The notes under the pieces are model-generated. The model worked only from the letters and a program-made list of their open reading frames with translations, ran no database searches and had not been told where the DNA came from. From Hericium rajendrae (Eukaryota > Basidiomycota > Agaricomycetes > Russulales > Hericiaceae): a stretch of DNA of 64,000 nt. The position numbers and the translations under genes were made by a program. Where the stretch lies: positions 1,860,001-1,924,000 of the forward strand of contig CM065881.1 in the NCBI GenBank assembly GCA_033439255.1. Direction: 5' to 3'. Below, one piece after another: positions 30,172 through 64,000 of this stretch; the stretch's first letter is position 1; each line of letters starts with the position of its first letter.

Positions 30172-30328
30172 CTATGGTTTTGACAAGCTCTAATACATTC
30201 TGGTTGGTGCCAGATTTAGAGACCTATAAGTAAATTAGTTTGTCAGCTCAGCAAGTGAGATACATACAAGACAATCAAGGTGAGCTGTTAGGTCAAGTAC
30301 CTCCTAGTTCCAAACTGTCAACCACTCA

Positions 30329-32279: not shown

Positions 32280-32685
32280 TGTGCACCCGTGTTAGGATAA
32301 AATGGGAAGAACAGGGTCCATGGCGAACTGCATGTGCATTGAACATGATGCACGGAATGAGCCTCCACCTTCACATGATCACTCAACGGTGAATTGCATG
32401 CATATGTTGAAGTCAGATGCATCACCTGCATGCACTGTTGAGTGATCACATGATGCGCAGCCCATGCTGTTCATGTGGAGGAGCTGGTGCAGGTCGTAGG
32501 GCAAGGGGTGTGGAGTCAAAAACAATGTACCTTGTCGTCGTTCACAGGCATGTGCCTACAGCTGCACCTAGCACGTGCTGCTCCCGTTTGCTCATGCTAT
32601 GAGGGTGACATGTTCTGTGGGTGCTGCAAACTGAGCGCTGCATCTGACATACTCATTGCTCATGTTTCCGTGTTCTGCACTTGTT
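32280..32685. other. No supported gene; target of CATCTG copy 2
   Basis: TGCATG-rich sequence with short overlapping frames on both strands. CATCTG copy 2 is inserted at its right edge, duplicating TT (32684-32685). Confidence 0.4.
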
Positions 32686-33801: not shown

Positions 33802-33883
33802 GTAAGTAAAATTAAACTCTTTATTAGCATTCTTTGTACTAATAAAGAGAGTATCGCCCATTCGAGAATGAGCAATACTCTCT
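33802..33883 (+). other. Intron-like segment plus hairpin module (copy 2)
   Basis: GTAAGT at 33802, branch-like TACTAAT and AAAG at 33847 give a 46-nt candidate intron. The hairpin AGAGAGTAT...ATACTCTCT (33846-33883) follows at the same spacing as in copy 1. Confidence 0.5.
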
Positions 33884-33899
33884 CATTCTTCCACTTCCA

Positions 33900-35060: not shown

Positions 35061-35585
35061 GTTGTACCCTCAGCTTGTCTGTGGTAGTGTATTCCAAATA
35101 TAAGAAAAAATTTGCTTTAATGTCTCGAGTGCTTAGCCAACTGACAACAGTGAATATAGTAGTCATAGTAGTCATAGTTTCCCTTAACAAGTATCATAAT
35201 CCTATGTATATGACACCCCTAGCTATGGAGGCTATGATCCTCTATGTATTTAACACTTCATGCTATGGAGGCTATTATAGGCCCCATAGCTCTACCATCA
35301 GTAAACCTGGAAATTTCTGATTGGTTTCTGATTGTATCTGATTTGATCTGATTCAGATGATCAGACAGTCAGATCAGTCAGGTAGGTCTCTATTGTCCAG
35401 TGTCTTTCAGACAAAAGTGTCTGATTTCAGACAGTCATCTAAGAGTCAGATAGCTGTCTGGAAGTCAGACAAGTGTCTGAGAGTCAGATTCTATCTGGAA
35501 GTCAGATCTTGTCTGATATTTCACTTATCTATATCTGAAGTCAGATCGTGTCTGAAATTCAGATTCTGTCTGAAGTCAGAGTTTA

Positions 35586-35670
35586 ATCTGATAGTCAGAG
35601 TTTAATCTGATAGTCAGAGTTTAATCTGATAGTCAGAGTTTGATCTAATAGTCAGAGTTTGATCTAATAG
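35586..35670. repeat. ~20-bp tandem repeat in copy A
   Basis: Five head-to-tail units of CTGATAGTCAGAGTTTAAT and its variant with TTTGATCTAATAG, part of the left subterminal region. Present inverted at about 62534-62640. Confidence 0.75.
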
Positions 35671-36408
35671 TCAGAGATATCATGATGTCAGATATAAACC
35701 AGAACATGATTTCAGATCAGATTGCAATCAGGTCAGATCAGATGAACCTCAGATTAAGGTCCAGACTATCCATTTCAGAACAGACAAGATTATTCCATTC
35801 AAAACATTAAAACCAAAGCTAGATTAATAGCAGCATGTTACATCATAAGTATCAGAGGCCATGAGGTAGGCAGGCAGAGTATGCAACAAACTACATAATT
35901 GAAGATGATTAAGGAAAGGTGACTGGGATATATACCTTTGTAGGACACGCCGGGGCTGTCTCAGGTAGGTGCAGGGCTGTTCTGATCGTGCAAGCTTGAA
36001 CACATCTGTTTGGGGTCATGCACGACACCGCGGGGCCACGTTGCGACGGCGAACCATTTATGACATAGTGGTCCACGCGCGAAGCGTGAATGCCATGTAC
36101 GATAGATATCGCGGGCTGTGCACAGCAAGCAGCCACACACAAGGCATGGGTGCTTAGAGTGCCGTGCAGGCCACGCATGCGATGAGGGAACCATACAGCA
36201 CAACGTGACCAGGCCATATGGGAGATGTGGGAGCCGTGTGGGTCCGTGCTGGCTCACAAGCATCCGTGCGGAGTCCTGCACAAGATGAAGGCAGTGTGCG
36301 GAGGAGCAGAGGGCATGGGGGAGGTGGGACGTGCAGTGGACGAGGGCACAGCAGAGATAGCCTGCAGGGTGCGGGGTGCAGGAGAGCCGAGGGAGAATGT
36401 TGAGAGAA

Positions 36409-38010
36409 CAAGGAATACGGCTCATTATCGAGCAGTACTCCTTAGTTAGCATCATAAACAATGGAATGACGAGAATCCTTGCTCACCTTTTGCTCTTCCA
36501 GAGTCTAGCAATTCCCCCTCACCCTTCATCATCCCTCCGCGCGCAAGGGCTGAGGGTCAAAGGGCGTGAGAAATGGGGGCACGGGAGAGGCACCGAGGGC
36601 GGCAGTGGCGAGGATACGGAATGGACGCGGCAGCGAGGAGGGCCGAGGGATGTGCGGGGGTCAGAGAACGAAGACAACAGAGAGTATCGCTCGAAAACGA
36701 GCGATACTCTCATTATTAGTACGGGTTCACAACAAGAATGAAGAACTACTACTGACCTTTGATACCCAGGAACCCTCTGCGATCCATGCGGGGCTCGTTT
36801 TGATGATGAACAGCGAGACAGAGAATGGAAAGAGGAGGAATGAGGACGAGTGGAGTCAGAGTGACAGGATTATGAGGATAAGTTGAACTTCGAAGTCGAT
36901 GCACGTTCCCGGGCATTGCCGGTCGGGGATTGCCGACTGGACCGGTGGCTTGCCGGAAGCACAACTCGTGTTTGAAACGTCTAAGTCATACTTATCGATT
37001 TATCCCTTGCTGTTTCTCATCTTCATCCCCTCCATCCTTCGGTTTCTGATGCCCTGAAGGCTTGAGGGGCTTATTCGAGTCCTAGGTAAGTCATAAAACT
37101 TGTTCTTGCATTGTTCATTGTATTAACTCAGGGAGTGCTGCTCGTTTTCGAGCAGTACTCCCCGTTTTCACATTCTCTAACGTTAATTCGAATTTCGAAG
37201 GCCGGATGGACGTGTTAGAAGGCCAGGCAGACTTGCTGCAGGGCAGAGGGCTCTAAGGTGAGTATCAAATCTGTTATTCTACTGTCTTTCGTGCTAACTC
37301 CGGGAGTACTGCTCGATAACGAGCAGTACTCCCTGTTATTTGTTCTTCCTCAAGACCCACAGCCCCACCCCGATTATCCCGTGTCCTGCACCCTGCACAC
37401 CACCTCTCTCGTGTCCCATTTCCCGCACGTGCTCCGACTCCGCCTCGATTCCTGCATGCCTCCGTCTCCTCGTGCACGACCTCGCACGACCTGCACAACT
37501 CTGCACCCCGCATCCCCGGTAAGTGCTCCTTTCTTAAGCCTTTATATTCGCCTGCAGCCCGCGCAGTCTGTAGAGACCAAAATGCATGCATTTTGGGCTT
37601 ACAGGCGCGCGGGCTTTCTGCTGTCATGTCTGCGTGCCCGTGCAGGCTGCTGGGTCTGAAATATGTGCATTTCGGGCCCCTCAGGTGCACGGGCCTTGGA
37701 GTCTCGTCTCTACCTGCCCGCGCAGGCTGTGGGGTCCGAAACCTTTGCGTTTCAGGCCCTACATGTGCGTGGACCTTCGGTTATCGACTCTACGCGCCCG
37801 TGCAGGTGTGGGGTCAGAAATGTTTTCGTTTTGGGCCATACAGGTGCGTGGGCTCCCTGTTTCCTCCCTCCCTCCCTCGCGTTTGTGCCCTATCGAGCAT
37901 CAACACAGCCAGAGCGGGTTTTCAGCAGGCAGAGGGCTGTAGGTGAGTAAAGAATGATTTTCTTTACCTTTTTTCGTACTAATCAAGAGTCACTCATTTT
38001 CGAGCAACAC
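36409..38010. other. Cluster of hairpin/intron-like modules in copy A
   Basis: Hairpins at 36409-36443 and 36680-36711 (modules on the minus strand) and at 37131-37162, 37302-37333 and 37985-38010 (plus strand). Candidate introns precede them, for example GTAAGT 37086 to CAG 37131 (46 nt) and GTGAGT 37943 to AAG 37987 (45 nt). Two further donor/branch segments without a clear hairpin start near 38382 and 38664. Stems differ in sequence but keep pairing. Confidence 0.6.
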
Positions 38011-39118
38011 TCGTTCTTTCAACGGCTCCTCAAGCCTCCCACCATCTATCGCACATCGCCATCATCAGTCCCCGCGGCTCTCCGCTCACCTTTACCACCC
38101 TCCGCGCGCCATCCCACGTACCACCACCTCTTTTGTGCCCCATGCCCCATCACGTCCCTCCTTTCCTGTGTCCTTCACCCCATGCCCATCCCACTCCCTG
38201 CACAACCCCGCCGTCTCGTAGGTGGACCTGCATTAACACACACAGCATGGCACGCACAAGCACAGCATCCACACCTCACGCGCAGGCATCCACGCTTTGC
38301 ACGTGGACCAGTCATGTCGTGCTTGGTCCAGCCATTGTATGCATGGGCCCACACGACTCCGCACGGATCCGCACCCAAGATAAGTAAAGCTGCCCTCTAT
38401 TTTATTGCTTGTTGTGCTAACTTGGCTCCCCGTTACGTGCCTTGCATGTTGCGTTTCCTGTGGTCCATGCCTCGTGCACGCCGCGCCAATCCTTCTGCCC
38501 TCTGCCTTCCTCGCACCCAGTGCAACTTGTACAGGCCTCCACCTTCTTGCACACAGCCCTGCACAACCCCGCACAATCTCAGACGAATGCGAAGGTCCAC
38601 ATCATCTTGTGAGCAGACCCGCATCGGTTCACACAGCACCTATGTCTCGTGCGTAGTCCACAGTGAGTAAAATACCTGCTATACAATAATCTATCGTGCT
38701 AATTCGGCTTTCTGCCTCACCAATTAAAGGTCCAAGGGGCTTTCTGGAGGCAAAGATGAGTCCAACAGCCTTTATCGTATTTAACCCAGGGGACCCACTT
38801 GAACATGATGGATCTACTACTTAGCTTTATATATTCTTGTAATTACTTAGCTAAAGAACAGAGCAATGTGGGCTGCGTAGTTGTTGTGTCTGCTATGGCT
38901 TATAGATATCATTCTAAATCTGAGCTTAAGATCAGCCTGATTTTAAGTCCAAGTTCTCTTCTGAGTCTTTATTCTGAGTCTGACAGTTCAAGTTCAAGTC
39001 CAAGTCCAATTTGCCTGATTTCAACTTTGATTGATAAAGATGCTGATATATCAATAAAAACATACAGATGTCTTGATAGATGAAAAGTGATATGACAGTG
39101 TTTAATGTTTGATGTGTC

Positions 39119-39845
39119 TGATAAGTACTAGATGATAGAGACCTTTCTGACTCCATCTGAAAAGTAACAATGGTCTGACATTTATTAACTGACTAGTAAA
39201 ATGATCTTCATCCAGATATATAAAAATCTGATCTGAAAACATCTGGATGATAGAGACCTACCTGACTTCATCTGAAAAGTATCAATGATCTGACTTTTAT
39301 TTAATGTCTAACAAGATTACCTTCATCTGATAGATGTATGAGAATCTGATATGTCTGAGAATATCTGGATGATAGAGACCTACCTAACTTTATCTGAAAA
39401 GTAGTAATAATCTGACTTTTATTTAATATCTGACAAAATTACCTTTATCTGACAGATGTAGAAACATCTGACATGTCTGAAAAAATCTGGATGATAGAGA
39501 CCTACCTGACTTCATCTGAAAAGTAGCAATGGTCTGACATTTATTAACTGTCTGGCAAAATAATCTTCATCTGACAGATACATGAGAATCTGACATGTCT
39601 GAGAACATCTGGACGATAGAGACCTACCTGACTCTATCTGAAAAGTAGCAATGGTCTGACTTTTATTAACTGTCTGGCAAAATAATCTTCATCTGACAGA
39701 TACATGAGAATCTGACATGTCTGAAAACATCTGGACGATAGAGACCTACCTGACTCTATCTGAAAAGTAGCAATAATCTGACTTTTATTGAATGTCTGAC
39801 AAAATTACCTTCATCTGACAGATTTTTAAGAATCTGATAGGTCTG
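39119..39845. repeat. 121-bp tandem repeats at right subterminus of copy A
   Basis: About six units containing GATAGAGACCTACCTGAC, CTATCTGAAAAGTAGCAA and CATCTGACAGATACATG. Copy B has the same array at about 47340-47845 with one unit fewer. Confidence 0.8.
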
Positions 39846-40669
39846 CTTATATCTGATATTCTTCTGATTTTACAAAATGATCTACACACTATTTTATTCA
39901 TATGTGAGTCAGACAAATGGACCTGTTCAGAACTCTCAGACAAAAGTCAGACAATCAGACTAGTCAGAAGATTCCTCATTTCCTGATGTGTTGAAACAAT
40001 TCCCAATGCCATCCTTACCCGTCCCTTCCAAGACATTACCTCGGACTTCATCATCAAACTCCCAGAATGCCAAGGCTATGACTCCATCAATGTGATCGTC
40101 GACCGTTTTACAAAGCACGTCTCCTTCACTCCTTGTAAAGAGACCATTACCAGTGATGGCACAGTCGACATCCTTTTTGACAGGATTTATCGAAACTACG
40201 GCCTCTGGGAACGCCTCATCTCTGATCGTGGCCCACAGTATGCAGGCAAAGTCATGCGTGGCATCTTTGACAAACTTGGTATCAAGTCCTCCCTCAGCAC
40301 CGCCTATCATCCACAGACCGACGGCGAGTCAGAACGCATCAATCAAGAACTCGAGCAGTTCCTTCGTACCTTCTGCAACTACCGTCAGGATGATTGGGTC
40401 CAATGGCTCCCTTACGCTGAGTTCTCGCACAACCACCGTATCCACAGCGCCACTAACCGAGCTCCATTTGAAATGCTCCTCGGCTATATTCCCACTGCCA
40501 TCCCCACTGTCAACCCCACATCGTCTACACCCGCCGTCGAGGATCGTTTCCATCACCTCGAACAACTTCGCACTGAGGTCCAGGCCAGCCTTCAAACAGC
40601 TGCTGATCTCATGAAGCGTAACAACCAGGACCATATGCACAACACCATCCACTTCCAGGTTGGTGACAA

Positions 40670-40872
40670 CATCAGCAAAACATAAAATTTCTGACTGCTC
40701 TGAGAGCATCTGAAGTCATCTTATTCATGTCTTTTTTATCTGAATATACATTATTTCTGAGAAAAACAAGACTTGCCTGATGGTCTAATGGTCTGAAATG
40801 GTCTGAAAGGCAAATTTAGAGCATTTCAGATCAAATTCAGATCAAATTCAGAAATTTTACGTTTTGCTGATG
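40670..40872. mobile_element. 203-bp CATCAG MITE sharing the Plavaka ends, TSD AA
   Basis: Ends CATCAGCAAAACATAAA and CATCAGCAAAACGTAAA (as reverse complement), followed by ATTTCTGA. These match the ends of the 10.9-kb Plavaka element except at the three variable bases. Flanked by AA (40668-40669, 40873-40874). Excision restores GDKVWLDGK in the integrase frame. Confidence 0.95.
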
Positions 40873-41370
40873 AAGGTCTGGCTCGATGGCAAGAACATCA
40901 AAACCACACGACCCAAAGCTAAGCTTGCTGATCGACGCCTGGGACCTTTTGAAATCACTGACGTCCTGGGCCCAGTCTCTTATCGACTGAAGCTACCGCC
41001 CACCTGGCGTATCCACCCGGTGTTCCACACGTCCCTGTTGTCCCCTTACAAGGAAACCGATGCTCATGGTCCCAACTTCCCTGCACCACCACCTGACCTT
41101 GTGGAGGGTGAGGAAGAGTACGAAGTTGAGTCTGTCCTCGATGCTCGTCTCACTCGGAACAAACGCGGCATTGAATATCTCGTCAAATGGGCAGGCTATC
41201 CTGATTCAGAAAATCAGTGGCTTTCACGTACCTCCCTTTCCAATGCCCATGGTGCAATCACTGACTTCTACACCCGCCATCCGCATGCACTCAAGGCTCC
41301 CAATCTTCGTGGACTCATCTACCTTGACCCCGTCCATGCTCATCACGCACTCCAGGCGAAAGTGCGTCTT

Positions 41371-41380
41371 AGAGAGGGGG
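41371..41380 (+). other. Polypurine tract, gypsy-2
   Basis: AGAGAGGGGG immediately before the LTR start TGATGTCACGG. Confidence 0.7.
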
Positions 41381-41829
41381 TGATGTCACGGATCACTCCA
41401 TTTCTCTCCGCCTTCTTCTCTGCCATCAAGGCATCGCGTTGGTCATGTGCTCCAGCAGCCCCATCACATGTTCACTTCCTCACATGACCTGGGGCTATCC
41501 TTCACCCATGCATCTGAAAAATTGGAATTTTATATAGCCGAAAGGCAGACTATGTGTGCTATGAGAGTCCTATGTGTGCTATGTGGCTGGCCTATTTAGC
41601 TATGTAGAGCTATGTAGACTATGATAGTTGCCATAGCAGGAAGTGCAACATATATAGAGCTATGTACTTGTAAGAGGGCACTATGAATGCTATAGGGTCC
41701 CTATAGGCAGCTTTGGTCACCATGATTCCTATAGTAAGCCATCTAGATACCAGAGTGATCAAGTCCAAAAAAAATTATATTCGAGGCCATTACATTACAA
41801 CAAAGTATATAAGGTAATAATAAGCACAT

Positions 41830-42580
41830 CGTACGTGCACGCGGAGTCTTCAAGAAGCGTCTGGGGGCATTCTACCTCCGCGCGGGTGCGGCGCGCATGT
41901 GCGGCGCGCCGATCATGGGTGCGGCGCATCGATCGCGGGTACGGTGCGTTGAGCGTGGGCACGGGTCGTTGAGCATGGGCGCGGGTCGTTGAGCATGGGC
42001 GCGGGTCGTTGGATACGCGCGCGGGACGTTGCGTATGCGCGGTGTGCTGCGCGTGCATGCAGCATGTCGAGCCGCGTGCGAGTCGTCGAGCGCGCGTATA
42101 CACGTGCGCGGGATGCTGCGGGGAGGTGCGGCACGTCGAGCGCAGATACTGCGCGTCGAGCGCGGATACTGCGCATCGAATGCGGGTGCGGGGCATCGAG
42201 CGCGTGTGCGGGGCGTTGAGCACGCGTGCGGGACATTGAGCACGGGCGCGAGGTGCTGCGGGGAGGTGCGGCACGTCGAGCGCATGTGCAGGCGTCGAGC
42301 GCGCGTGCGGGGCGTCGAGCACGTGTGCGGGGCATTGAGCACGGGCGCGAGGTGCTGCGGGGAGGTGCGGCACGTCGAGCGCGGATGCTGCACGTCGAGT
42401 GCAGGTGCGGGGTGTCGAGCACGTGTGCGGGGCATTGAGTGCGTGCGCGAGGCGTCGAGCACGCGTGCGGGGCGTTGAGCGCGTGTGCGGGGCGTTGAGC
42501 ACGAGTGCGGGGTGCTGGACGCGCGTGCGGGTTGCGGAGCGTGCGTGCGAACGACGTCCCGAGTCCCGTTGCCGTGGCAA
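41830..42580. repeat. 18-bp minisatellite core of CATCTG copy 3
   Basis: Tandem units around GCGTCGAGCACGTGTGCGGG with a larger repeated block GGTGCTGCGGGGAGGTGC at about 42110, 42250 and 42350. On the minus strand this gives Arg/Ala/Cys/Pro-rich open frames of up to 261 codons. A codon-multiple period in a GC-rich repeat explains them. Confidence 0.75.
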
Positions 42581-42879
42581 CGGGACACTACCACGCAGTC
42601 ACCAGCGGACGTCGACGGCACGGGCCACGACACTGCCTACGCGCATGACGCGCAGACGGTGCGGCACGGCGGGGCACGGTGGACGTGCGTAGTCCGTCGC
42701 CCGGGGTGTGCGTGACGTGGGACATCGGGCGCGGTGGGTTGATGTTGCGCGCGCGGGCAACCCGAGGCGTTGCTGGCGTCGTTGGGGAGGCGGAGAGGGC
42801 GATGTGAAGGCGGCGGGGGCGGCAGAGATGTGGGATGGGCGGTGGGAGGCGGTGAGAGGCGTGAGGATGTTGAAACAAC

Positions 42880-42960
42880 GAGTGTCGCTCGAAAATGAGC
42901 GACACTCTGTATTAGTACGAAGAAAGGATAAAAAGTACTGTATTTACTTATCTGCCACCC
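42880..42960 (-). other. Hairpin and decayed intron-like segment (copy 3)
   Basis: Perfect stem GAGTGTCGCTC / GAGCGACACTC (42880-42907). On the minus strand it is preceded by ATAAGT (donor with A in place of G), a pyrimidine stretch, TACTAAT and ACAG. Confidence 0.5.
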
Positions 42961-44590
42961 TCGGCCTGCTGCAAACCCGATCCTGCCGTGTTGAAGCTCG
43001 ATAGACGACGAAAAAGCGGGGAGGGAGGGAGGAATCATCGGAGGTGAAGAAGGGAGAGTAAAGGAACGAGGGTCTCGACGCGTTAACTCGGTGCTTCAGC
43101 CACCGAACACGCGATGAGACTTTACAAATCAAATAAAATAGCTATAAATACGAAAAAAAGAGAGTAACTATTGATCATGTATACAAGTAGAATACATGAG
43201 CTAGCTATGTAGAAAGCATACTGTACGGTACTAGGTAGCAAGGTCAAGATAAGTGACTCTATTCCTTAGTCTCTGACGCGGCACTCGGTAACTCCCGGCA
43301 GCCGCGATTCTCGGCTTCGCCCGGGATTCGTATATAAGGCAGCGCACGACGCGCGTTTGCTCTTGCTCTTTAACCCCATCATCCCCTGCCACGTTGACGC
43401 CTTTGTCATCGTCGTCTGCCTGCTCGTCGTCGCTGCTCTCTCTGTCGTCATTGCTACTCCCTTCATCGTTATTGCTACTCTCTCCGTCGTTGTTGCTACT
43501 CTCTCCGTCGTTGTTGCTCGTCGTTTGTTATCTCTCTTATAGGTAAGTATCTATCTTTAATCTCTTGCACCTTATACTAATATCTTTGTATTAGTCTGAT
43601 TAGCTTTTATTTGTAGACTCAGATTTAAATTTTGCTTTTCTCTAAACTTAGGTAAGCTACTGTGTTATATTCTTTGTGTTATACTTATAATTTCTTGACA
43701 GATTTTCGCTTTTCTAACAGTTAGGTAAGCAGTTGTCTTTTATCTTTGATTGTATCTTTGTACTAATGCCTTTCATTCTCTGTATAGTATAATAGAGTTG
43801 TAATATTATTTTATATAAATATATTATTTATCAGTATTAATGTAGGGTTGTATATAATATTATAATGCATAATAAAATTGATATTCTATTGCTTCCTTTA
43901 TAATATGTATATTAAGCTATAATGTGAGATCTAGATTGCTTATAAAACTTTAGATTTATTTAGATAAATAAAATATAGTATAAAAGATAACATAGCTTTG
44001 ATAATTGCATATAACATGAATAGTATACATATAGTTTATAATATGAATAGCATATATACAATATATAGTTAGTATAGCTCTTATAGCTGTCTTATACTAT
44101 GGTACCTATACCTTATAGTAAGATGACTATGATAGCTATGATAGCACTCTATAGCTGTCCTATCTGGCTCTATGGCTCTATATAGGTGACCTTCAAGCTA
44201 TATAGAGCTATGAAGAAAAGGAGACAGCTATCAAGCTATTAGAGCTATGTAGCCGATATAGTCATATATAGCTCTGACAGATTTACCAGATGTGCCCTTG
44301 TTCCCCTTTGGGACATCCTATTGTTCTCCCTCCCATTGTTCTCCTTTTGGCCACCATTGTTCTCACTCTATTGTTCGACCCATTATGGTGTCCATTGTTC
44401 TTTTCCCATTGTCGTCCCAGTACTTATAGGCTCTCTGTCGCTCGCCTATTTCCCTAGATTGTCCATTTCGTCTGTACCGTACTGTACCTCCAATACAGGT
44501 CACTGCGCTGCTAGTCACTCTCTGCTCTCTCGCTCCCATCATCGCTGGTGACTTGGGTGGTTCTCTGCTGTCTACGACCGAGTCTTGACA

Positions 44591-45765
44591 CATCTGAAGT
44601 ATTGAGTCTCAGGCTTTTTAGACAGCATGTGAGAAGAATACTTGAGTAAAAATGCTTTCTGCCATGTCTGATTGTATCTGAATTCTAAACAATAAAGATT
44701 AGTTTGACTTGGTCTAATCAAGGTAATGCTTTGGACCTTTCATACAATGTCTAAGAGAAGTCAAGATTTTTAACATATATACAAACTCTGAAATATCTGA
44801 TCATGTCTGACAATAAACACCTGCAGGATTTTTGTCTGAACTTTATAATATGTCTGACTATATTTCTTGTTTCTGATAGAGTACAAAAATCTAAAATGTC
44901 TGATACTATCTGATGATAGATATCTGCAGGATTTTGTCTGACTAATAAGCATCTTTAAAAATTTTATCTAAGATTTGTAGTATGTCTGACTATATTTTCT
45001 CTATGTCTGACTGAATATAAAACTCTGAAGTGTCTGATCATGTCTGACAATAGACACCTGTAAGATCTGTGTCTGACACTTATCATATATCTGACTTTTT
45101 ATACAAAGTCTGATGATATTTCTTATATCTGACAGAATTTGTAAATCTGAAAGATCTGATTGTGTCTGATGATAGACACTTGTAGGAATTTTGTCTGAAC
45201 TTTGTGATGTGTCTGATCATATTTTTATGTCTAACTGAACATAAAAATCTGAAATGTCTGATTACATCTAACAATAGATACCTGCAGGATTTTTATCTGA
45301 CATTTATAATATATCTGACATTTTATACAAAGTCTGATGATATTTTTTATATCTAACATATATGCAAACTCTGAAAGGTCTGAGAATGTCTAACGATAGA
45401 CACCTGCAGGATTTTTATCTGACTTTTATAATAATCTGACTTTTTATACAAAGTCTAATAATATTTGTTGTGTCTGACAAAATTTGAAACTCTAAAAGAT
45501 CTGAGAATGTCTAATGATAGACACCTGTAGGGTTTTTTTTCTGAAAAGTGTTGATTTATCTAAAAAAAAAAAAATATCCAATCTCTGATAAAATTACCAA
45601 TGTCTGAATATTTTTGAAGGTCTGATGGCTCTGATGGTATCTGAAGCACATCTGAAAGTGAAAAGTATCTACTCATCATTTTATGCATATTTTGGTCCAG
45701 ACATTTGAAAATTTTCAGACAAGTCAGATTGTCAGATTAGTCAGTAAATATGACCTTTGCTGATG
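44591..45765. mobile_element. Right part of another CATCAG-type element (gypsy-2 target)
   Basis: TCTGA-rich sequence with about six tandem units of ~130 bp containing GATAGACACCTGCAGGATTTT, ending ACCTTTGCTGATG at 45765. No left end is seen; it starts directly at the end of the gypsy-2 LTR. Gypsy-2 probably inserted into it, leaving the left part outside the window. Confidence 0.65.
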
Positions 45766-47017: not shown

Positions 47018-47112
47018 CATCTGAGAAAAGAGATTTTTATATAGCAGCAAGTCCTGTTATAGGCCCTATCAGTGAGCTATGGGGACTATGAAGTTGGACT
47101 GTTCAGCTATGT
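47018..47112 (-). mobile_element. CATCTG element copy 2, displaced right end
   Basis: On the minus strand it continues from AC through CATAGCTGAACAG and CTATATAAAAATC to CTCAGATG, followed by TT. The TT matches the left duplication at 32684-32685 and the leading AC matches 35295-35296. It is the missing end of the element that stops at 35296. Confidence 0.88.
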
Positions 47113-52700: not shown

Positions 52701-53489
52701 CATCGTCCGCATTCGACTCGGGTTGGAAGGTTGGGTCTCGATCGGAATCATCAGTGGGTTCTGAGTACTGCAGGTGAGTAACGATTCGTCTTTAGAGTGA
52801 AAATAAACCACTGACCTTCAATGATCTCCTTCTCGGACATCCTACGGCCACCCACAGCTGCTCGCGCAACTCCTTTCGACTTTGAACTCGTCTTCTCCTT
52901 CGCCTTCCCACCTGCAACTGCCTGTCTTGCTGTCTTCCCCTTCAACAATGACCTATCGCGTACCGGATCGGCGTGGATTGACTTATCGCCAGCATCTCGG
53001 TCCCTCTCCCCATCCTCCTCCAACTTCTCCTCCTCCGACGTGTCCTCGTGCACACGTTTCTGCCCTCTAGGCATCGCGGGTGGGACCTCAACGAAAACTT
53101 GCTGCCTGGGAGCTGTTGTTGAGACATCAACAAGGTGAGCTTAAGAATCTCCAATCAAAAAATATGAACTAACCTTGCTGGACTGCCCGCCCCGCACGAC
53201 CACCACCATGACCGTATATCCTCGACGGTCCCACACGCTCACCATCAAGCAGAGCCTCGTTCGCCTGCCGAACGCGTTCAAGGCGGGAACTCCAGTCAGC
53301 CGCCTGCTCTTGAGCAGCCCATTCAGCAGCTTCGCCAGCCGCGAGCTGCTCGTTCGTTTGACGCCGCTTGTGCGAGTTTGACGAAGTCATCCAAGACTGG
53401 TGAGTACTAGCATCCGGTAACGAAGTCGAGCCGGATTGACCAGAGCCACGGGGGGATGCGGCTCGAGTCTTCGCGCGAGTGGACACCAT
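49760..53489 (-). pseudogene. DUF6532-like gene carried by the Plavaka element
   Basis: Nine-exon model, all GT-AG: 53489-53174, 53112-52816, 52760-52505, 52244-52028, 51974-51381, 51286-50954, 50901-50272 (MITE inside), 50205-50089, 50041-49760. Phases fit throughout; about 878 residues once the MITE is removed. Residues 1-560 are Ser/Lys/Glu-rich and disordered (start MVSTRAKTRAASP). The C-terminal third (from about LVVPIWRHYF, through FFLGYDKFKPINEDI and GALALTCAAVE to DFSSSN) resembles the DUF6532 family of mushrooms, function unknown. Damage: a 403-bp MITE in exon 7 and an in-frame TGA (49955-49957) where TGG is expected. Intron 3 (260 nt) contains no AG before its acceptor. It shares a ~1-kb divergent spacer with the transposase. 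A role as accessory protein of the element is inference; the family call is moderately sure. Confidence 0.62.
50369..50771. mobile_element. 403-bp CATCAG MITE in DUF6532-like exon, TSD TT
   Basis: Starts CATCAGGAACCTTGAC and ends TCAACCTTCCTGATG, flanked by TT on both sides. Excision rejoins RTRWA to RFFLGYD in frame on the minus strand. Confidence 0.93.
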
Positions 53490-54567
53490 GAAGCAAAGAC
53501 TGACTGAGTTGTTAACAGATAGTAGAGGAGAACATGAGGGGGAAGAGTGTGTGTCAGACGAGCAACGATACACACCTGTATTTAAAGTCGAGTGCCCGTA
53601 GTTTTGGCTTTCGGCTCTGTGCTGTGGGTTCTGCCGCGCCCGAGCTGTGAATTCCCCCGCACGCGAGCCTTCCATCCCTGGTAAGTCCCGACTTCGCGTG
53701 TTTCCCGCTACCATGTGCGCTCCCGCCTGATTTGATTTGCTTTTTCCCTTTCACCCAGATCTTCCGACTTCTTTGTGTCTCGGCCCTGCCGTTTGGTCTG
53801 CACCACGCGCGCTTCCTCTGATTGCATCGCACGTGTTGTCTCCGTGTCCTGCCCAGGAGCTCCTCAGTATCTTTCACACCAGCTGTCCCGAGATCTCGCA
53901 CCCGCCGTTTGGCTTACAATCCCACTTCTATTCACCTGAGGCCCCGACCCAGTCTGCACCCCGCATGTGAGTAGCTCCCTATCTCTCATCACAGCTTACT
54001 CACGCGCGGTGTCTTGTGCCCGCAGTTTCCGTTCCCGTCTCCATTCCCGTTCCACTTCGGGCTCTTTCCGCTACCACCGTAGTCTATCTGCGCACCTCCG
54101 CTGTGCCTCGTGCATGCTCAGTGGAGCTATTTGACTGGGCTTAATCTCACGCACGCATTGTGTGCTGTGCTTTGTGCGTGCCTGGGCCTGTACATCTCGA
54201 GCAGCATCTTGCACATTTTTGACACATCTCGCACATCTCCGGCGATATCATACACACCTCAGCTCATCTCTCTTGTGGTGCTGCATCTTGGGTGTTTGTC
54301 TCAGTGCACCTTGGGAACTTTGTGCTGTGTGTTTCTCACTGTGCTGTGCTTTCAAAGCTTGTTGCTGTGTCTTGCATATTTTCGTAGAGTCTGAATCGGA
54401 AATCTAGTGTCTTGTTGAACTTTGTTTGAATATTGGGCCCTGATCTTGCCCTGATTGCACATATTTCTTGCTTGGCCTCTAGCCTTTAGCATTGATAAAT
54501 CTGAATTGACTGAGAAAATAACATTGATCCTTGAAACTACTGGCTATTATTGGTTGGCTTGCTAAAC
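53490..54567. promoter_or_regulatory. Divergent spacer between DUF6532-like gene and transposase
   Basis: 1.08 kb separating two oppositely transcribed start codons. It holds pyrimidine-rich runs and CACATCTC words but no clear TATA box. A shared or back-to-back promoter is likely from the layout. Short open frames here are not supported. Confidence 0.4.
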
Positions 54568-57521
54568 ATGCCTCTTCCTCGCCGCAAAGTGCAGCGTGCT
54601 CGTGCATATGCTTGTCCAGTGCCTTCAGGGTACATTTGCAGACTTGGCTTTGTAACTTTAGGAGGTCTCAAAAAACACATGACTGCATCACATCCTGATA
54701 TACAAAGTTTGGAGGATGCACAGGCTTCTGCTCGTGCTCGTGCTCGTGCTCGTACTTCTCGAGTTCCATCACCTATGCCTCGTTCTCCATCCCCAAGTCG
54801 TTCTTCATCTCCAGATGTGCCTGCAGCTTTTTATGATGATCCAGACTATTGTCCACAAGATGGATCTGATACAGAGGAAACTGCAGGCCCTAAAAATACA
54901 ACCATAACACATCCTGTTGTAAATGGAAGGCCATGTGATAAATCTGGAAAATATCTTGATGATCCTGATGCACCACCTGTACCAAAGACTTCAGATCCAG
55001 ATAATTGGTCTCCTTTTGAAAATCGGATAGAATTTGAAACTGCAGATCTCCTTTTTCGTCAGGTGCACACATCAGAGAAAAAATTTGACACTCTGATGAG
55101 GCTTTGGGCACAGACTACAGATGACTGCCCTTTTGCAGATCACGAGGACTTACATGCCACATTTGACTCAATCTCTATGGGAGATGCACCATGGCTATGT
55201 TTTACTGTAAAATGGAATGGAGCTGTTGGAAGAAATGCACCTGCATGGATGTTTGAAGAATATGAAGTGTGGTATCGCAATCCACGTGTTGTCATTCAGA
55301 ATCAATTGAAAAATCCTGACTTCAAAGAAGAAGTTGATTATGCTCCTAAAAGAGAGTTTGGCTCAAATGGCAAAAGACAATGGACAGATTTTATGTCAGG
55401 AAATTGGGCATGGAGACAAGCTGATGAAATTGCTAAGGAGAATCCTACAAATGAAGGTGCAATGTTTGTGCCAGTTATTTTGGGTAGTGATAAAACAACA
55501 GTCTCTGTGGGTACTGGTCACACTCAGTATTGGCCACTTTATGCATCAATTGGAAATGTACACAATAATGTACGCCGTGCTCATCGTGATGCAGTAACTG
55601 TTATGGGATTTTTAGCTATTGCAAAAACAGATCAGGAATATCAAAATAGTGTTTATTTTCGACGGTTTCGACGACATCTTATGCATCAATCATTACGGAC
55701 AATTCTTGAGCATATACATCCTGGAATGACTACTCCTGAAGTAGTGCAGTGTTCAGATGGACATTTTTGCCGTGCTATTTATGGTCTTGGACCATACATT
55801 GGAGATTATCCTGAACAGGTTTTATTTGCTTGTATTGTTCAAAACTGGTGCCCTAAATGCACATGTCATTGGAAAGATCTAGACAGTGGACAAGGCATTA
55901 ATCGATCTCATGAGCATACCAAAAGTTTGATAGATGATAGATCTAATAGTAATAAAAAGCTTTGGGATAATTATGGCATAGTAGCAAATATTATGGTAAG
56001 TAATTAACTTGATAAAATATTGCATAGATTGTCTAAATAAAGATTTTACAACAGCCATTAACATATTATTTTCCACGTGCTGATATTCATGAATTGCTTT
56101 CATTTGATCTTCTTCACCAAGTGATTAAAGGCACCTTTAAAGATCATTTAGTTGATTGGGTTCAAGAATATTTGATTAAGCAACATGGACCATCTCGTGC
56201 TCTACAAATTATGGCAGATATTGATCGAAGAATTGCTGCTGCTCCATCATTTCCAGGATTGCGTCAATTTCCTGATGGACGTGGTTATACACAGTGGACT
56301 GGTGATGATTCCAAGGCACTTATGAAAGTTTGGCTGCCTGCAATTGAAGGTCATGTGCCTTCACAGATGGTTCGAGCCATTGCAGCCTTTTTAGAATTTT
56401 GCTACATTGCACGAAGATCTGTCATTGATGAAGACAGCTTGGCTGAATTAGATGCTGCTTTGGAGACCTATTATAAAGAGCGTGTAATATTTGAAAAAGC
56501 TGGTGTTACTCCAAAAAACATATCATTACCTCGACAACACTCTTTGAAGCATTATCATCACTTGATTGAGGAGTTTGCAGTACCAAATGGCCTATGCACT
56601 TCTATTACAGAGGCAAAACATATCAAAGCTGTAAAAGAGCCTTGGAGATGGTCTAGCAGATTTAATGCTTTAGGACAAATGCTTATTACAAATCAAAGAC
56701 TTGATAAACTTTCAGCATGCCGGGTTGATTTTACAACTCGAGGCATGTTAGATGTACCTTTTGATTTTGTAATAACAGATGAAGAAGTTGATCCAGGTGC
56801 CAATAATGATTTGAGCACTTCAGACTCAGATTCTGATAGTGATAGACTTCAAAATGATGGAGAACTGCTACTAGATGATTATAAAGAAGATCCTGAGGAA
56901 AGTGGACCTTTGCTAGTAGAGAGATCTGAAATTATCATGTCTAGTGTCTCATTAGCCAAAGGCCGAGATACATATTATCCTCGAAGGCTTCGAGCTGTTG
57001 AAACATTTACTGGCTATTGGAAATTATCTGATTCTATTCAAAGATTCCTATATGATCAATATCATCTTGATGAGCCACCACCACTAGATGACATTCCTCT
57101 GTCACAATGTCCACTTGCACCATACAAAATTGATATAGTCAGTTCTGCTACAGCAATCTATCATTCTCCTAGTGATCCTTCAGGCATCACAGGAATGCGA
57201 CATCATCTGATCCGTTCATCATCTTCTTGGCGTGGTTCAGGTCCAAGACATGATTGTGTATATGTAAACAATAATGCAGAATTGCTAGGAATGCATGGAT
57301 TATATATTGCACAGATCTTACTTTTCTTTTCATTCTCACATGAAGGCACAGTATATCCCTGTGCATTTGTTGAATGGTTTATTACTATTGGAGATGAGCC
57401 AGATTCAAATACAGGAATGTGGATAGTAGAGCGAGAACAAGATGACAATGGTGAACCTGTTCGTTCAGTGATACATATTGATACAATTCTTTGCCCATTT
57501 ACTTCCTATCTTTGGAAATGA
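54568..57521 (+). CDS. Plavaka-family transposase
   Basis: Two exons, 54568-55995 and 56055-57521, joined by a 59-nt intron (GTAAGT...ACAACAG), about 964 residues. I chose the ATG of MPLPRRKVQRA over upstream non-ATG codons. The N-terminus has a C2H2 zinc finger (Cys pair in ACPVPSGYIC, His pair in KKHMTASHP), then a Ser/Arg/Pro linker and acidic stretch. The central region includes WYRNPRVVIQNQL, AMFVPVILGSDKT, LEHIHPGMTTPEV, GLGPYIGDYPEQV and NWCPKCTCHW. Exon 2 has FDLLHQVIKGTFKDHLVDW, QWTGDDSKALMKVWLPAIEG, LPRQHSLKHYHHLI and AKHIKAVKEPWRWSSRFNAL. These blocks match the Plavaka transposases (CACTA-related) common in Agaricomycetes. No stop, frameshift or insertion, so it may be functional. 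Expected action: excision and insertion at the CATCAG ends. Codon use is AT-richer than in the divergent partner gene. Confidence 0.9.
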
Positions 57522-59000
57522 TTTTCTTCCATCAAATTTTCAGCATACATGGTCATTAGATGCATTTTCTACATACTATGTTAACAAATACTCAGATCAT
57601 CATGCACATGAAATTGCATTCTAACTCTGTATATTATATGTACTAGTAATTACAATAATCAGTGTTGGTTATAAAGATGATTGTCATTTGTCATTATATG
57701 ATAAAATTGATGTGATATTTTTTGCTACCAGGTATGTTATGATGTTTAGCTTTGTCACTAAAATCTGAAACTGTTGCTACTGAACTTACCTTGTCAGAAT
57801 GTGTTTGAATCTCAAATCATCAAAAAGATACTCTTTGCTTAAGATCTTATAATGTTAGAATTGAATTAAATTTCAGACCTTTAGATAAGCTTTGCTTTTC
57901 AGGTTGCATAGAAATACTAAATCACTTCAGACTTTACTACATTTTTTCAGACTTGACATGTAATATCAGAATGTATTTGAACCTAAGACTATCAGACAAC
58001 AACTTTTGATTAGATATGTCAAAATGTCAGAGTTGAACTTAATTTCAGAGTTTCAGACAACTTCTATTTTTCAAACTGCACAGACACTCTAAATCTTTTC
58101 AGAGATTTCACATTCTTTCAGACTTGACATATAATGTCAGAATATGTTTGAATCTCAGATCATCAGGCAAAAAAAGAAATCCAGATATTTCAAAATTGTT
58201 AGAAGTAACCTCAATGTCAGACTTTCAGACAATATCTGCTTTTTCAACTACACACAGACTTTTTAAGTCTTTTCAGATACTCTAAATCTTTTCAGACTTG
58301 AAATTAGTAATTTCTTTTAGACTTAATATATAATGTCAGAATATATTTAAATCTCAGACTGTGAATCTTATAGTAGTATCAAATTAAGCTCAATATATTT
58401 GAATTGCAAACTATCAGATCAAAAGTTTTTGCTATTAAGATATTTTTATATCTTGAAGTTAAAGTTGAAGTTAAACATAAGACTTGATATCATAGTACTA
58501 TACTGTATACTACTTAGTATCAAACTGTCAGACAACTCTTACTTAGTATTAATCTAGTGAATACTAGAAATACTAGTACTAAAATTAAGTATTACTACTA
58601 GGCTAGTACTAATAATATTCAAGTTAGTACTCCTTAGTACTTTTACTACTTTCAAGTTGTGCCTCAGAGCAGATCTTTTTTCTTGAAAGTGACAAGTTTT
58701 TTGAAAGCCTCATATTGTCACAAATTGGAAGTCTAATACTAGTTTTAGCAGAGTATTAGTAATAAGTTCTACAATTACTGAGTACTACTACTAAGCAGAC
58801 ATCACATTTAACATCTCAATATAATATTTGTCTCAGCTTGAAGCAAAAAAAAAGAAATCTCTAAATACTGCTAAGTTAGTAGTGAGGCTTTTGATTAATC
58901 AGTCTATCAATGAACTTAATGCATGTTACTTAGTGTATCTTGCCTGATAGTCTGAATCTGTCTTTAACTCTGAGTATCTGATTATTTTTGATATCTAATA
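57522..59000. other. Plavaka right subterminal region, no gene
   Basis: 57750-58480 is a loose array of units with TTTGAATCTCAGA, CAGACTTTCAGACAA and TTTTCAGACTTGACAT (about 190 bp period). 58480-58900 is rich in TACTAGTACTA words. No open frame of interest. Confidence 0.55.
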
Positions 59001-59401
59001 CATCAGGAACCTTCAAAACTTTCTGTTTGACCTGCGAGGCATCTGACAGTGTCTGCATGATCTGCAGCAGTTGCATCAGACACATCAGATACTCTCAGAC
59101 AGCATCAGCTACTCTCAGCTAGCTGCAAAATATTTGACCTCAAGATTCAAAAAAGTATCAATGCAGAATGCTTGCAGACTGATCAGAACTGATCAGATTC
59201 ATGTAAATTTTAGATATTGAAAACTTTGTTACATCTAATGATTAGAGTTGGATGACTACTATATCTGCCAATAGTTATTGACTTCAAAATATAAAATCTC
59301 TGATCAGAAATTGTCCTCTAATTAGAGCCTGCAGCTGAATCAGGTCTTGCAGTTGATCAGACTCTGCAGGGTTCATCAGAAAGTTTTGAAGGTTCCTGAT
59401 G
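59001..59401. mobile_element. 401-bp CATCAG MITE inside the Plavaka element, TSD TA
   Basis: Same subfamily as 13959-14359 and 30329-30729 but with about a dozen substitutions. Flanked by TA on both sides. Confidence 0.93.
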
Positions 59402-62011
59402 TATGTCTGAATGCTTCTGAAACACAGTCTAAAATTTTACTGTGTCTGTTTTTCATCTGATATGTCTAATTTATCTGAATATTGTCTGAGAGCAACTTTC
59501 TTCAGACATGTAAAGATTTCAGACAAATCAGTCAAATTAGACAGCTTCAGACTAGTCAGAAATTTTGGGTTTTGCTGATGTGGCTGGACCAAGCACGACA
59601 TGACTGGTCCACGTGCAAAGCATGGATGCCTGCACACGAGGTGTGGATGCTGTGCTTGTGCGTGCCATGCTGTGTGTGTTAATGCAGGTCCACCTACGAG
59701 ACGGCGGGGTTGTGCAGGGAGTGGGATGAGCGTGGGGTGAAGGACACAGGAAAGGAGGGACGTGATGGGGCATGGGGCACGAAAGAGGTGGTGGTACGTG
59801 GGATGGCGCGCGGAGGGTGGTAAAGGTGAGCGGAGAGCCGCGGGGACTGATGATGGTGATGTGCGATAGATGGTGGGAGGCTTGAGGAGCCGTTGAAAGA
59901 ACGAGCGTTGCTCGAAAATGAGTGACTCTTGATTAGTACGAAAAAAGGTAAAGAAAATCATTCTTTACTCACCTACAGCCCTCTGCCTGCTGAAAACCCG
60001 CTCTGGCCGTGTTGATGCTCGATAGGGCACAAATGCGAGGGAGGGAGGGAGGAAACAGGGAGCCCACGCACCTGTACGGCCCAAAACGAAAACGTTTCTG
60101 ACCCCACACCTGCGCGGGCGCGTAGACTCGATAACCGAAGGTCCACGCACATGTAGGGCCCAAAACGCAAAGGTTTCGGACCCCACAGCCTGCGCGGGCA
60201 GGTAGAGACAAGACTCCAAGGCCCGTGCACCTGAGGGGCCCAAAATGCACATATTTCGGACCCAGCAGCCTGCACGGGCATGCAGACATGACAGCAGAAA
60301 GCCCGCGTGCCTGTAAGCCCGAAATGCATGCATTTTGGTCTCTACAGACTGCGCGGGCTGCAGGCGAATATAAAGGCTTAAGAAAGGAGCACTTACCGGG
60401 GATGTGGGGTGCAGGGTTGTGCAGGTCATGCGAGGTCGTGCGCGAGGAGACGGAGGCATGCGGGAATCGAGGCGGAGTCGGAGCACGTGCGGGAAATGGG
60501 ACACGAGAGAGGTGGTGTGCAGGGCACAGGACACGGGATAATCGGGGTGGGGCTGTGGGTCTTGAGGAAGAACAAATAACAGGGAGTACTGCTCGTTATC
60601 GAGCAGTACTCCCGGAGTTAGCACGAAAGACAGTAGAATAACAGATTTGATACTCACCTTAGAGCCCTCTGCCCTGCAGCAAGTCCGCCTGGCCTTCTAA
60701 CACGTCCATCCAGCCTTCAAAATTCGAATTAACGTTAGAGAACGTGAAAACGGGGAGTACTGCTCAAAAACGAGCAGCACTCCCCGAGTTAATACAATGA
60801 ACAATGCAAGAACAAGTTTTATGACTTACCTAGGACTCGAATAAGCCCCTCAAGCCTTCAGGGCATCAGAAACTGAAGGATGGAGGGGACGAAGACGAGA
60901 AACAGCAAGGGATAAATCGATAAGTACAACTTAGACATTTCAAACGCGAGTTGTGCTTCCGGCAAGCCACCGGTCCGGTCGGCAATCCCCGACCGGCAAT
61001 GCCCGGGAACGCGCGTCGACTTCGAAGTTCAACTTATCCTCATAATCCTGTCACTCCGACTCCACTCGTCCTCATTCCTCCTCTTTCCATTCTCTGTCTC
61101 GCTGTTCATCATCAAAACGAGCCCCGCATGGATCGCAGAGGGTTCCTGGGTATCAAAGGTCAGTAGTAGTTCTTCATTCTTGTTGTGAACCCGTACTAAT
61201 AATGAGAGTATCGCTCGTTTTCGAGCGATACTCTCTGTTGTCTTCGTTCTCTGACCCCCGCACATCCCTCGGCCCTCCTTGCTGCCGCGTCCATTCCGTA
61301 TCCTCGCCACTGCCGCCCTCGGTGCCTCTCCCGTGCCCCCATTTCTCACGCCCTTTGACCCTCAGCCCTTGCGCGCGGAGGGATGATGAAGGGTGAGGGG
61401 GAATTGCTAGACTCTGGAAGAGCAAAAGGTGAGCAAGGATTCTCGTCATTCCATTGTTTATGATGCTAACTAAGGAGTACTGCTCGATAATGAGCCGTAT
61501 TCCTTGTTCTCTCAACATTCTCCCTCGGCTCTCCTGCACCCCGCACCCTGCAGGCTATCTCTGCTGTGCCCTCGTCCACTGCACGTCCCACCTCCCCCAT
61601 GCCCTCTGCTCCTCCGCACACTGCCTTCATCTTGTGCAGGACTCCACACGGATGCTTGTGAGCCAGCACGGACCCACACGGCTCCCACATCTCCCGTATG
61701 GCCTGGTCACGTTGTGCTGTATGGTTCCCTCATCGCATGCGTGGCCTGCATGGCACTCTAAGCACCCATGTCTTGTGTGTGGCTGCTTGCTATGCACAGC
61801 CCGCGATATCTATCGTACATGGCATTCACGCTTCGCGCGTGGACCACTATGTCATAAATGGTTCGCCGTCGCAACGTGGCCCCGCGGTGTCGTGCATGAC
61901 CCCAAACAGATGTGTTCAAGCTTGCACGATCAGAACAGCCCTGCACCTACCTGAGACAGCCCCGGCGTGTCCTACAAAGGTATATATCCCAGTCACCTTT
62001 CCTTAATCATC

Positions 62012-62302
62012 CATCAGGAAAAGGGAAAATGTCTGACTGTCTGACTGTCTGACAGTTGTCTGAAATGTCTAAACTTCTGACCCACATATGGATGGAATTA
62101 CATATAGATTATTATTATATAGAGCTCAGATAGACTCAGACTTCAGTCTGACATCAGACAAAAATGTCTGAAAGGCACTTGACGATAGGGACCCGTCTAA
62201 TTGGTCTGATTGTCTGATCATCTGGACCAGACAGAACCAGACAGAATCAGATCAGATTAGACAAAGTCAGACACCATTCAGACAAATGCTGGTTTACTGA
62301 TG
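62012..62302. mobile_element. 291-bp CATCAG MITE in copy B
   Basis: CATCAGGAAAAGGG at the left and GGTTTACTGATG at the right with a TCTGA-rich interior. Copy A lacks it at the matching place (near 35915). Copy A reads AATCATCTTCAATT there, whereas copy B has TC before the element and AGTC after it, so the duplication is not clean. Confidence 0.82.
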
Positions 62303-62914
62303 AGTCTTCAATTATGTAGTTTGTTGCATACTCTGCCTGCCTACCTCATGGCCTCTGATACTTATGATGTAACATGCTGCTATTAATCTAGCTTTGGTTT
62401 TAATGTTTTGAATGGAATAATCTTGTCTGTTCTGAAATGGATAGTCTGGACCTTAATCTGAGGTTCATCTGATCTGACCTGATTGCAATCTGATCTGAAA
62501 TCATGTTCTGGTTTATATCTGACATCATGATATCTCTGACTATTAGATCAAACTCTGACTATTAGATCAAACTCTGACTATCAGATTAAACTCTGACTAT
62601 CAGATTAAACTCTGACTATCAGATTAAACTCTGACTTCAGACAGAATCTGAATTTCAGACACGATCTGACTTCAGATATAGATAAGTGAAATATCAGACA
62701 AGATCTGACTTCCAGATAGAATCTGACTCTCAGACACTTGTCTGACTTCCAGACAGCTATCTGACTCTTAGATGACTGTCTGAAATCAGACACTTTTGTC
62801 TGAAAGACACTGGACAATAGAGACCTACCTGACTGATCTGACTGTCTGATCATCTGAATCAGATCAAATCAGATACAATCAGAAACCAATCAGAAATTTC
62901 CAGGTTTACTGATG

Positions 62915-64000
62915 CATGAGGGCGGTGATTTTGAACCTTGGTGGCCTGGCAGGTAGCACAGCCATCAACATAATCACGAACGAAGACAGACATACCGGGC
63001 CACCAGTAGTTGCGACTGAGGAGCTCATAGGTCTTGTAGCGTCCTGGGTGACCAGCCATGGGGGTGTCATGATGCAGCTCGACGATGTCCCGACGAAGGT
63101 CCTTGTCAGCAGGGATGTAGACTTTGCCACGAAAGAGGATGAGGCCATCCTCGTAGTTCCATTCTTGGAGGTTCTTGACGAGGGAGCGAGGACCATTGTT
63201 CAGGATCACATCAAGGGCTTGAACAACCTCAATGTCCTTGGTCTTGGCATTGCGAATGCGTTGGCACATCAGAAAACTCCTCACTTTCCTGGCTTTACTG
63301 TTATAGGTCTGATGTCACTGTTTTGGGCCTGATATTACTGTTTTCAGACTGCTTTCAGACATCTGAATCTGATATGTGTCTGAAAACAGTAACATCAGGT
63401 CCAAAACAGTGACACCAGACCTACAACAGTAAAGCCAGGAAAGTGAGAAGTTTCCTGATGCGAAGGTCAGCATTGCCAATGGACTTGACAGCAGCTGGAC
63501 GTGTAGCACGGATCTGGAAGTACTTGGGGTCGAGGAGGACACGATCGGAGTTGTCGTCGTCCACCCCCTCTCTATAATCAGGTCGTCTCGACATGGCGTC
63601 GGGCTGGTGATGAATACCGGGTTTGTGGATCAGGGTGAAGTCGAAACGAGTGAGGAAGAGAGCCCAGCGAGCCTGACGATGACTCAGCTTTTGGGCAGAC
63701 TTGAAGTATTCCAGGTTCTTATGGTCGGTCCAGATCTCCACAGTATGGGGAGAACCTTCCAGGTAGTGGTGCCAGGCTTCGAGGGCACGGATGATGGCCA
63801 GGAGTTCCTTGTCATAGATGTCGTAGTTGCATTCGGGGGCGGTGAAGGCCTTGGAGATGTAAGCAACAGGGTGCCATTGCTCGTCCTCCCCGCGCTGGGA
63901 TAGGATACCTCCTGTGGCATAGTCTGAGGCATCGACCTCAATCAGGTAGGGTTTGGACGGGTCAGGCATGATAAGGACTGGGGACGAGGTGAACGCAGCT
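62915..64000 (-). pseudogene. Gypsy-2 RNase H and integrase zinc domain (5' half, partial)
   Basis: Enters from beyond the window on the minus strand. RNase H: VDASDYATGGILSQ (first Asp), YDKELLAIIRALE (Glu), WTDHKNLEYF (Asp). Then HKPGIHHQPDAMSRRPDY. After a MITE (63267-63460) comes the integrase HHCC domain with LHHDTPMAGHPG and DGCATCQATKV. It ends at CGCCCTCATG where copy B begins, and continues in phase at 39990. Apart from the two insertions I see no stop codons. Confidence 0.93.
63267..63460. mobile_element. 194-bp foldback CATCAG MITE in gypsy-2
   Basis: Arms of about 85 bp with few mismatches, starting CATCAGAAAACTCC and CATCAGGAAACTTC. Minus-strand flanks are CG and TG, consistent with a CG duplication with one transition. 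Excision gives DLRQRIRNA in frame. Confidence 0.9.

What the first reader, a model, noticed from the sequence alone, without database searches (positions are those of the whole stretch)
35295..62916. Inversion by recombination between two inverted 4.7-kb elements, proved by exchanged target duplications
Copy A is flanked AC...TG and copy B, in the same orientation, TG...AC. The CATCTG element cut at 35296 has its missing end at 47018-47112, with matching AC and TT duplications. Gypsy-2 cut at 39989 has its other half at 62915 onward, with matching TG and coding phase (CAT then GTT GAA). A single crossover between A and B explains all of it: the segment of at least 7.1 kb (39989-47111) plus parts of the arms was flipped.
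Basis: seen in the sequence. Interest (0 to 1): 0.92.

Follow-up and report, generated by a model that had tools for sequence, protein, structure and literature searches.

The report
Small inversion between two transposon copies
Two oppositely oriented copies of a mobile DNA element carry each other's insertion scars, which shows that the roughly 7-kb stretch between them was once turned around; it is a clean new example of a known kind of rearrangement.

Summary
Copies A (35296-39988, +) and B (47113-62914, -) are inverted copies of one CATCAG...CTGATG element with exchanged 2-bp target duplications: AC...TG and TG...AC. Both broken host elements occur unbroken elsewhere in the same genome, their halves abutting with exactly 2 bp of overlap: 24 of 40 listed loci for the CATCTG host, 18 of 39 for the Gypsy. 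So, as assembled, 39989-47112 is inverted.

'Proved' goes too far for the mechanism. One-step hybrid-element insertion leaves nearly the same scars (PMC2775673), and the separating test, chimeric copies, is uninformative here. A and B are sister copies: 22 sites unite them against the C9 and C7 copies, 1+1 conflict; at 18 of the 22 they share a lost CpG. They descend from one ageing local copy. Crossover between a parent copy and its locally moved daughter is likeliest (0.6).

No reads were available, so assembly error is not excluded. I recognised no host gene in the flipped segment, only transposon sequence.

The parts
32686..35295 (+). Left part of host 1, a CATCTG...CAGATG element, with TT before it (32684-32685) and AC at the cut (35294-35295)
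35296..39988 (+). Copy A, CATCAG...CTGATG element, 4,693 bp, flanks AC/TG
39989..41510 (+). 3' half of the Gypsy (integrase, chromo domain) up to a nested element inside its 3' LTR; begins with the TG duplication
41511..44292 (+). CATCTG...CAGATG element nested in the 3' LTR, duplication TG/TG
44293..44590 (+). Rest of the Gypsy 3' LTR; followed by CATCT
44591..45765 (+). Right-hand part of another CATCAG-type element, cut off at the LTR (ends TTTGCTGATG)
45766..47017 (.). Stretch without recognised element; longest ORF overlapping it is 125 aa; 46800-47002 had no other hit among the 40 scored loci
47018..47112 (-). Right end of host 1, inverted; TT beyond its outer end, AC at the cut (GT at 47111-47112 on the + strand)
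47113..62914 (-). Copy B, same element as A, 15,802 bp with nested insertions, flanks TG/AC in its own direction
48647..59580 (+). Nested CATCAG...CTGATG element in B, duplication CA/CA, with Plavaka transposase ORFs at 54535-56007 and 56037-57521 (strand given is that of the ORFs)
62010..62304 (.). Nested element of about 0.29 kb in B with CATCAG/CTGATG ends (outer bases ambiguous by 2)
62915..64000 (-). 5' half of the Gypsy, inverted, beginning at the TG duplication; runs on beyond the window to its 5' LTR (ends at C4:1928606), preceded there by CCAGT

Best explanation
Shown from sequence: as assembled, the segment 39989-47112 lies inverted relative to an order in which a CATCTG element and a Gypsy are each unbroken except for one CATCAG insertion. 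Inferred: an element with PlavakaB-type ends, in whose own ORFs no transposase was found, sat in one of the two hosts long enough to lose CpGs; a daughter of it inserted into the other host close by, in the opposite direction; then a homologous crossover between the two inverted 4.7-kb copies turned the segment round and swapped their right-hand flanks. Later A gained one 122-bp repeat unit and both copies went on losing CpGs; B holds two nested insertions that A lacks.
For: Exchanged 2-bp duplications; 16 of 22 both-ended family copies have equal duplications and A/B are the only reciprocal pair among the six that do not. Host 1 halves abut with 2-bp overlap in 24 of 40 loci, Gypsy halves in 18 of 39. 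Empty sites match. Host 1 duplication TT/TT restored. A and B share identical runs of 827 and 757 bp, ample for crossover (recalled). Four other family copies have non-reciprocal mismatched flanks, as crossovers among dispersed copies would leave.
Against: No chimeric structure can be shown: A and B are sisters, 22 sites against 1+1 conflicting. Gypsy duplications CCAGT/CATCT do not match, so one more event is needed; no partner junction was found. No reads, no second strain. The Gypsy has at least 39 other copies at about 98% or better, so its halves could in principle come from different copies.
Confidence: 0.6

Rival explanations
1. One-step aberrant transposition (hybrid-element or sister-chromatid insertion): one end of the element from each sister chromatid inserted together into the nearby second host, leaving two inverted copies, the segment between them flipped, and on each copy one old and one new duplication. 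Replicative (Shapiro-type) transposition would give the same anatomy (recalled).
For: Predicts that A and B were identical at birth; they are sisters, and all but 2 of their 64 differences are private to one copy. At 18 sites they share CpG losses that C9 and C7 lack, so both come from one resident copy. PMC2775673 states that the outcome is strikingly similar to ectopic recombination except for chimerism. Non-standard transposition of impala in Fusarium is mentioned in PMC8225341 (passages).
Against: Such insertions are rare compared with ordinary local moves and with crossover between long close inverted repeats (recalled). It does not explain the four non-reciprocal mismatches in the family. 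Not known to me for Plavaka.
Confidence: 0.2
2. Assembly error: the true order is uninverted, and the assembler crossed from one copy to the other.
For: The copies are 98.6% identical over 4,571 aligned bases with identical runs up to 827 bp; such errors at inverted repeats are common (recalled). No reads were available.
Against: A is only 4.7 kb and differs from B at 64 sites plus a 122-bp unit and two nested insertions, which long reads should resolve; 46.8 Mb in 19 contigs suggests a long-read assembly (inference).
Confidence: 0.1
3. A more tangled history in which the two Gypsy halves come from different Gypsy insertions or were joined by recombination between Gypsy copies, so that the A/B arrangement is one of several exchanges.
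For: The Gypsy 5-bp duplications do not match, while the C9 copy's do; at least 39 other copies at about 98% or better exist.
Against: Both halves are cut at the same base with the same TG, and the two LTRs share one change not seen in five other LTRs compared.
Confidence: 0.1

Closest known systems
Galileo-mediated inversions of Drosophila buzzatii (2j, 2q7, 2z3), PMC2775673
   Same: Two inverted copies of a cut-and-paste transposon at the ends, exchanged target duplications, later nested insertions in the end copies (2z3; abstract, passages and section 10 part 1)
   Different: There the copies are chimeric against two other copies and non-inverted chromosomes were sequenced; here chimerism cannot be shown and the empty sites are paralogs in the same genome. 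Here the segment is about 7 kb and the element has PlavakaB-type ends
PlavakaB transposons (PMC12730594)
   Same: CATCA..TGATG ends and 2-bp duplications (passages)
   Different: No Pfam match in the four ORFs of copy A that were scanned; the transposase lies only in the element nested in B
Reversed-ends and sister-chromatid transposition of maize Ac/Ds (PMC8225341)
   Same: Transposon-bounded inversions with duplications at the ends (passages)
   Different: The reversed-ends type creates a new duplication; the paper states that crossover inversions have none and leave mostly non-identical flanks, as seen here
Transposon-related rearrangements in Marasmius oreades (PMC9674265)
   Same: Structural changes at transposon copies in a basidiomycete, including one inverted hAT copy and deletions ascribed to non-allelic recombination (passages)
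   Different: No exchanged duplications and no Plavaka-bounded inversion in the passages seen

Membership tests
Transposon-mediated inversion by ectopic recombination | Two copies of one element in opposite orientation at the ends | tested here: met
Transposon-mediated inversion by ectopic recombination | Exchanged target duplications | tested here: met
   AC/TG and TG/AC
Transposon-mediated inversion by ectopic recombination | Empty sites show the unbroken flanks | tested here: met
   In paralogs of the hosts, not in the same locus of another strain: 24 of 40 and 18 of 39 loci
Transposon-mediated inversion by ectopic recombination | End copies are chimeric | tested here: inconclusive
   A and B are sisters; only 1+1 conflicting sites
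Transposon-mediated inversion by ectopic recombination | Uninverted order in related chromosomes | not testable with these tools
   Own genome only; the genome search said that it has no relatives here
Hybrid-element insertion | End copies identical when formed | tested here: inconclusive
   Sister copies, 62 of 64 differences private to one copy; also expected of a locally moved daughter copy
PlavakaB transposon | CATCA..TGATG ends | tested here: met
   definition from PMC12730594 passages
PlavakaB transposon | 2- or 3-bp target duplication | tested here: met
   2 bp; 16 of 22 both-ended copies match
PlavakaB transposon | Plavaka transposase in the element itself (autonomous member) | tested here: not met
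   No Pfam match in four ORFs of A, so A and B are called elements with PlavakaB-type ends, presumably non-autonomous; the element nested in B has PF18759

The most novel reading that the evidence does not exclude
The two near-identical inverted copies make this a segment that still flips by crossover, so that both orders coexist among nuclei or strains: a naturally invertible stretch bounded by PlavakaB-type elements. Alternatively, the second insertion and the inversion were one aberrant transposition event.
Probability: 0.3. Interest if true: 0.5.

Novelty: new member of a known kind. Interest (0 to 1): 0.38.

Why it matters
It is a base-exact record of how a transposon cluster rearranges a chromosome, readable from one assembly because both broken hosts have unbroken relatives in the same genome. 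It also shows that exchanged duplications alone do not separate crossover from aberrant transposition, and that shared CpG losses can reveal which copies descend from which. A library search for 'Plavaka' with 'inversion' gave 2 papers; in the passages seen neither reports an inversion bounded by Plavaka copies.

Tried and rejected
Mosaic test of A against B with the C9 and C7 copies: uninformative, because A and B are sisters. Dating by A-B divergence: not used as a clock, since 52 of 64 differences are CpG transitions. The lack of differences at the two ends of the element first looked like gene conversion; CpG is nearly absent in the first 400 bp and after about 3,600, so most of it needs no conversion. 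Host-1 identity of about 86% beside a 100% right end first looked like halves of different copies; the local profile is 97-100% around the cut, and 163 of 168 differences are transitions. Partner junctions for the Gypsy's mismatched duplications: none exact among 8 and 6 matches at up to one mismatch. The missing part of the truncated element at 44591-45765: relatives at 66-89% identity only, none covering its first 73 bases. A second inversion between the C12 copies at 1029349 and 1085761 was considered: it would restore CA/CA but not GT/TG, so it is not claimed. Replicative transposition: same anatomy (recalled), but I know of no evidence for it in Plavaka; the ten papers listed were mostly bacterial or on Helitrons, and passages of one (PMC11708052) did not treat inversions.

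Rows dropped before counts: 13 of 50 rows that end well before the cut were left out of the count; all 40 rows were used, the window's own row falling among the 16 without a partner. From the window's own rows were left out. In one search the right end of B was entered, because the search hit stops short of it; pairs up to 30 kb apart were accepted, so the pairs 17.5 kb (C8) and 26.7 kb (C12) apart may not be single elements.

Full report
The window is C4:1860001-1924000 of an unnamed 46.8-Mb genome in 19 contigs. A chromo-domain Gypsy and a Plavaka transposase suggest an agaricomycete fungus; that is inference. PMC12730594 (passages) reports Plavaka families from various Agaricomycotina.

What is there. 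Copy A runs 35296-39988 on the plus strand and copy B 47113-62914 on the minus strand. Both begin CATCAGTAAACC and end CATTTCCTGATG. With B's nested insertions left out, 4,571 aligned bases differ at 64 sites. B holds a 10.9-kb element at 48647-59580 with CATCAG/CTGATG ends, duplication CA/CA and Plavaka transposase matches in two ORFs, and an element of about 0.29 kb near 62010-62304. Four ORFs of A gave no Pfam match. Ends and duplication fit PlavakaB (CATCA..TGATG, 2 or 3 bp; PMC12730594 passages).

Duplications. Left and right ends were paired from two genome searches, each scoring 40 candidates, so this is a sample. Of 29 left ends, 22 found a right end on the same strand within 30 kb and 7 did not. 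Of the 22, 16 have equal 2-bp flanks and 6 do not (20; the last two from left flanks and right flanks). The six are A (AC/TG), B (TG/AC), C12:1029349 (CA/TG), C12:1085761 (GT/CA), C8:1521236 (AG/CA, 17.5 kb apart, perhaps not one element) and C12:1551175 (TA/TG, one transition from a match). A and B are the only reciprocal pair. By the observed dinucleotide mix a given pair would be reciprocal at about 0.036, so the swap alone is weak evidence. Two other close inverted pairs, on C7 (571 bp apart) and C12 (436 bp apart), are not exchanged.

Rejoined hosts. The flank left of A and the outer flank of B were searched separately. Of 40 right-flank loci, 24 abut a left-flank hit with exactly 2 bp of overlap, after allowing for where the alignments end; 16, including the window's own, had no left hit within 60 bp in the list; no other spacing occurred. 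[quoted passage not shown] This host has TT beyond both ends when rejoined. For the Gypsy, 18 of 39 loci abut with the same 2-bp overlap; for the other 21 no abutting right half was among the 40 listed. The joined site matches the C9 copy at 198 of 203 bases. So the assembled order is an inverted form of one in which both hosts are whole apart from one insertion each.

What does not fit. The Gypsy's 5' LTR, beyond the window at C4:1928606, is preceded by CCAGT, and its 3' LTR is followed by CATCT at 44591. The C9 copy has ACGAC on both sides, and a solo LTR at about C4:1930481-1930903 has ATCAC on both sides. So this Gypsy went through another event. Its two LTRs differ at six sites and share one change not present in five other LTRs, weak support for one insertion. 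No exact junction with the missing pentamers was found.

Order of events and mechanism. C9 and C7 copies are 98.6% and 96.8% identical to A, with duplications TG/TG and TC/TC. Twenty-two sites group A with B; one groups A with C9 and one groups A with C7. At 18 of the 22, C9 and C7 have CpG where A and B have lost it by a C-T or G-A change; of the other four, two are non-CpG, one is a transversion and one is a loss in C9 and C7 instead (my count of the list). So the common parent of A and B had already lost CpGs, most likely by deamination of methylated C (inference). Afterwards A gained 29 and B 33 private changes, 50 of these 62 at CpG, and A alone has one more 122-bp repeat unit. A and B therefore descend from one local ageing copy rather than from two separate arrivals, unless long gene conversion made them alike. 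A local daughter insertion followed by crossover fits. A one-step hybrid-element insertion fits equally; PMC2775673 (section 10 part 1) says that its outcome is strikingly similar except for chimerism, which cannot be seen here. I favour crossover because inverted repeats this long, close and similar recombine readily and hybrid insertions are rare (both recalled), and because four other family copies show non-reciprocal mismatches.

Consequence. Between the copies lie the Gypsy half with a nested element, a truncated element and about 1.25 kb (45766-47017) in which the longest overlapping ORF is 125 aa (not scanned for domains); two ORFs of the nested element gave no Pfam match. I recognised no host gene there, so no effect on the organism is claimed.

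Verdict. A well-documented example of a known kind of rearrangement. The mechanism is likely but not proved, and assembly error is not excluded.

Noticed in passing
window 44591; C4:1928606-1928611 (L031 4606-4611): The outer 5-bp duplications of the Gypsy broken by the element do not match (CATCT after the 3' LTR, CCAGT before the 5' LTR), unlike an intact copy on C9 and a solo LTR next door.
   Followed up: partly
C12:1029349-1034039, C12:1081089-1085761, C8:1521236-1538762, C12:1551175-1555236: Four more copies of the family have mismatched flanks without a reciprocal partner; the left flank of the C12:1085761 copy lies in a Gypsy LTR of the same family, its right flank does not match it.
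   Followed up: partly
window 13959-14366, 30328-30729 and 59000-59409: A repeat of about 0.4 kb occurs three times in the same direction, two copies 100% identical over 401 bp and the third about 96%; the third lies near one end of the 10.9-kb Plavaka element.
   Followed up: no
window 6065-7289 and 7286-8516: A direct tandem repeat of about 1.2 kb, two copies 92% identical.
   Followed up: no
window 31536-31748 and 31903-32115: An inverted repeat of 213 bp, 94% complementary, arms 154 bp apart, just left of host 1.
   Followed up: no
window 63267-63460: A nearly palindromic element of about 195 bp (CATCAG...CTGATG) lies inside the 5' half of the Gypsy, flanks CA/CG.
   Followed up: partly
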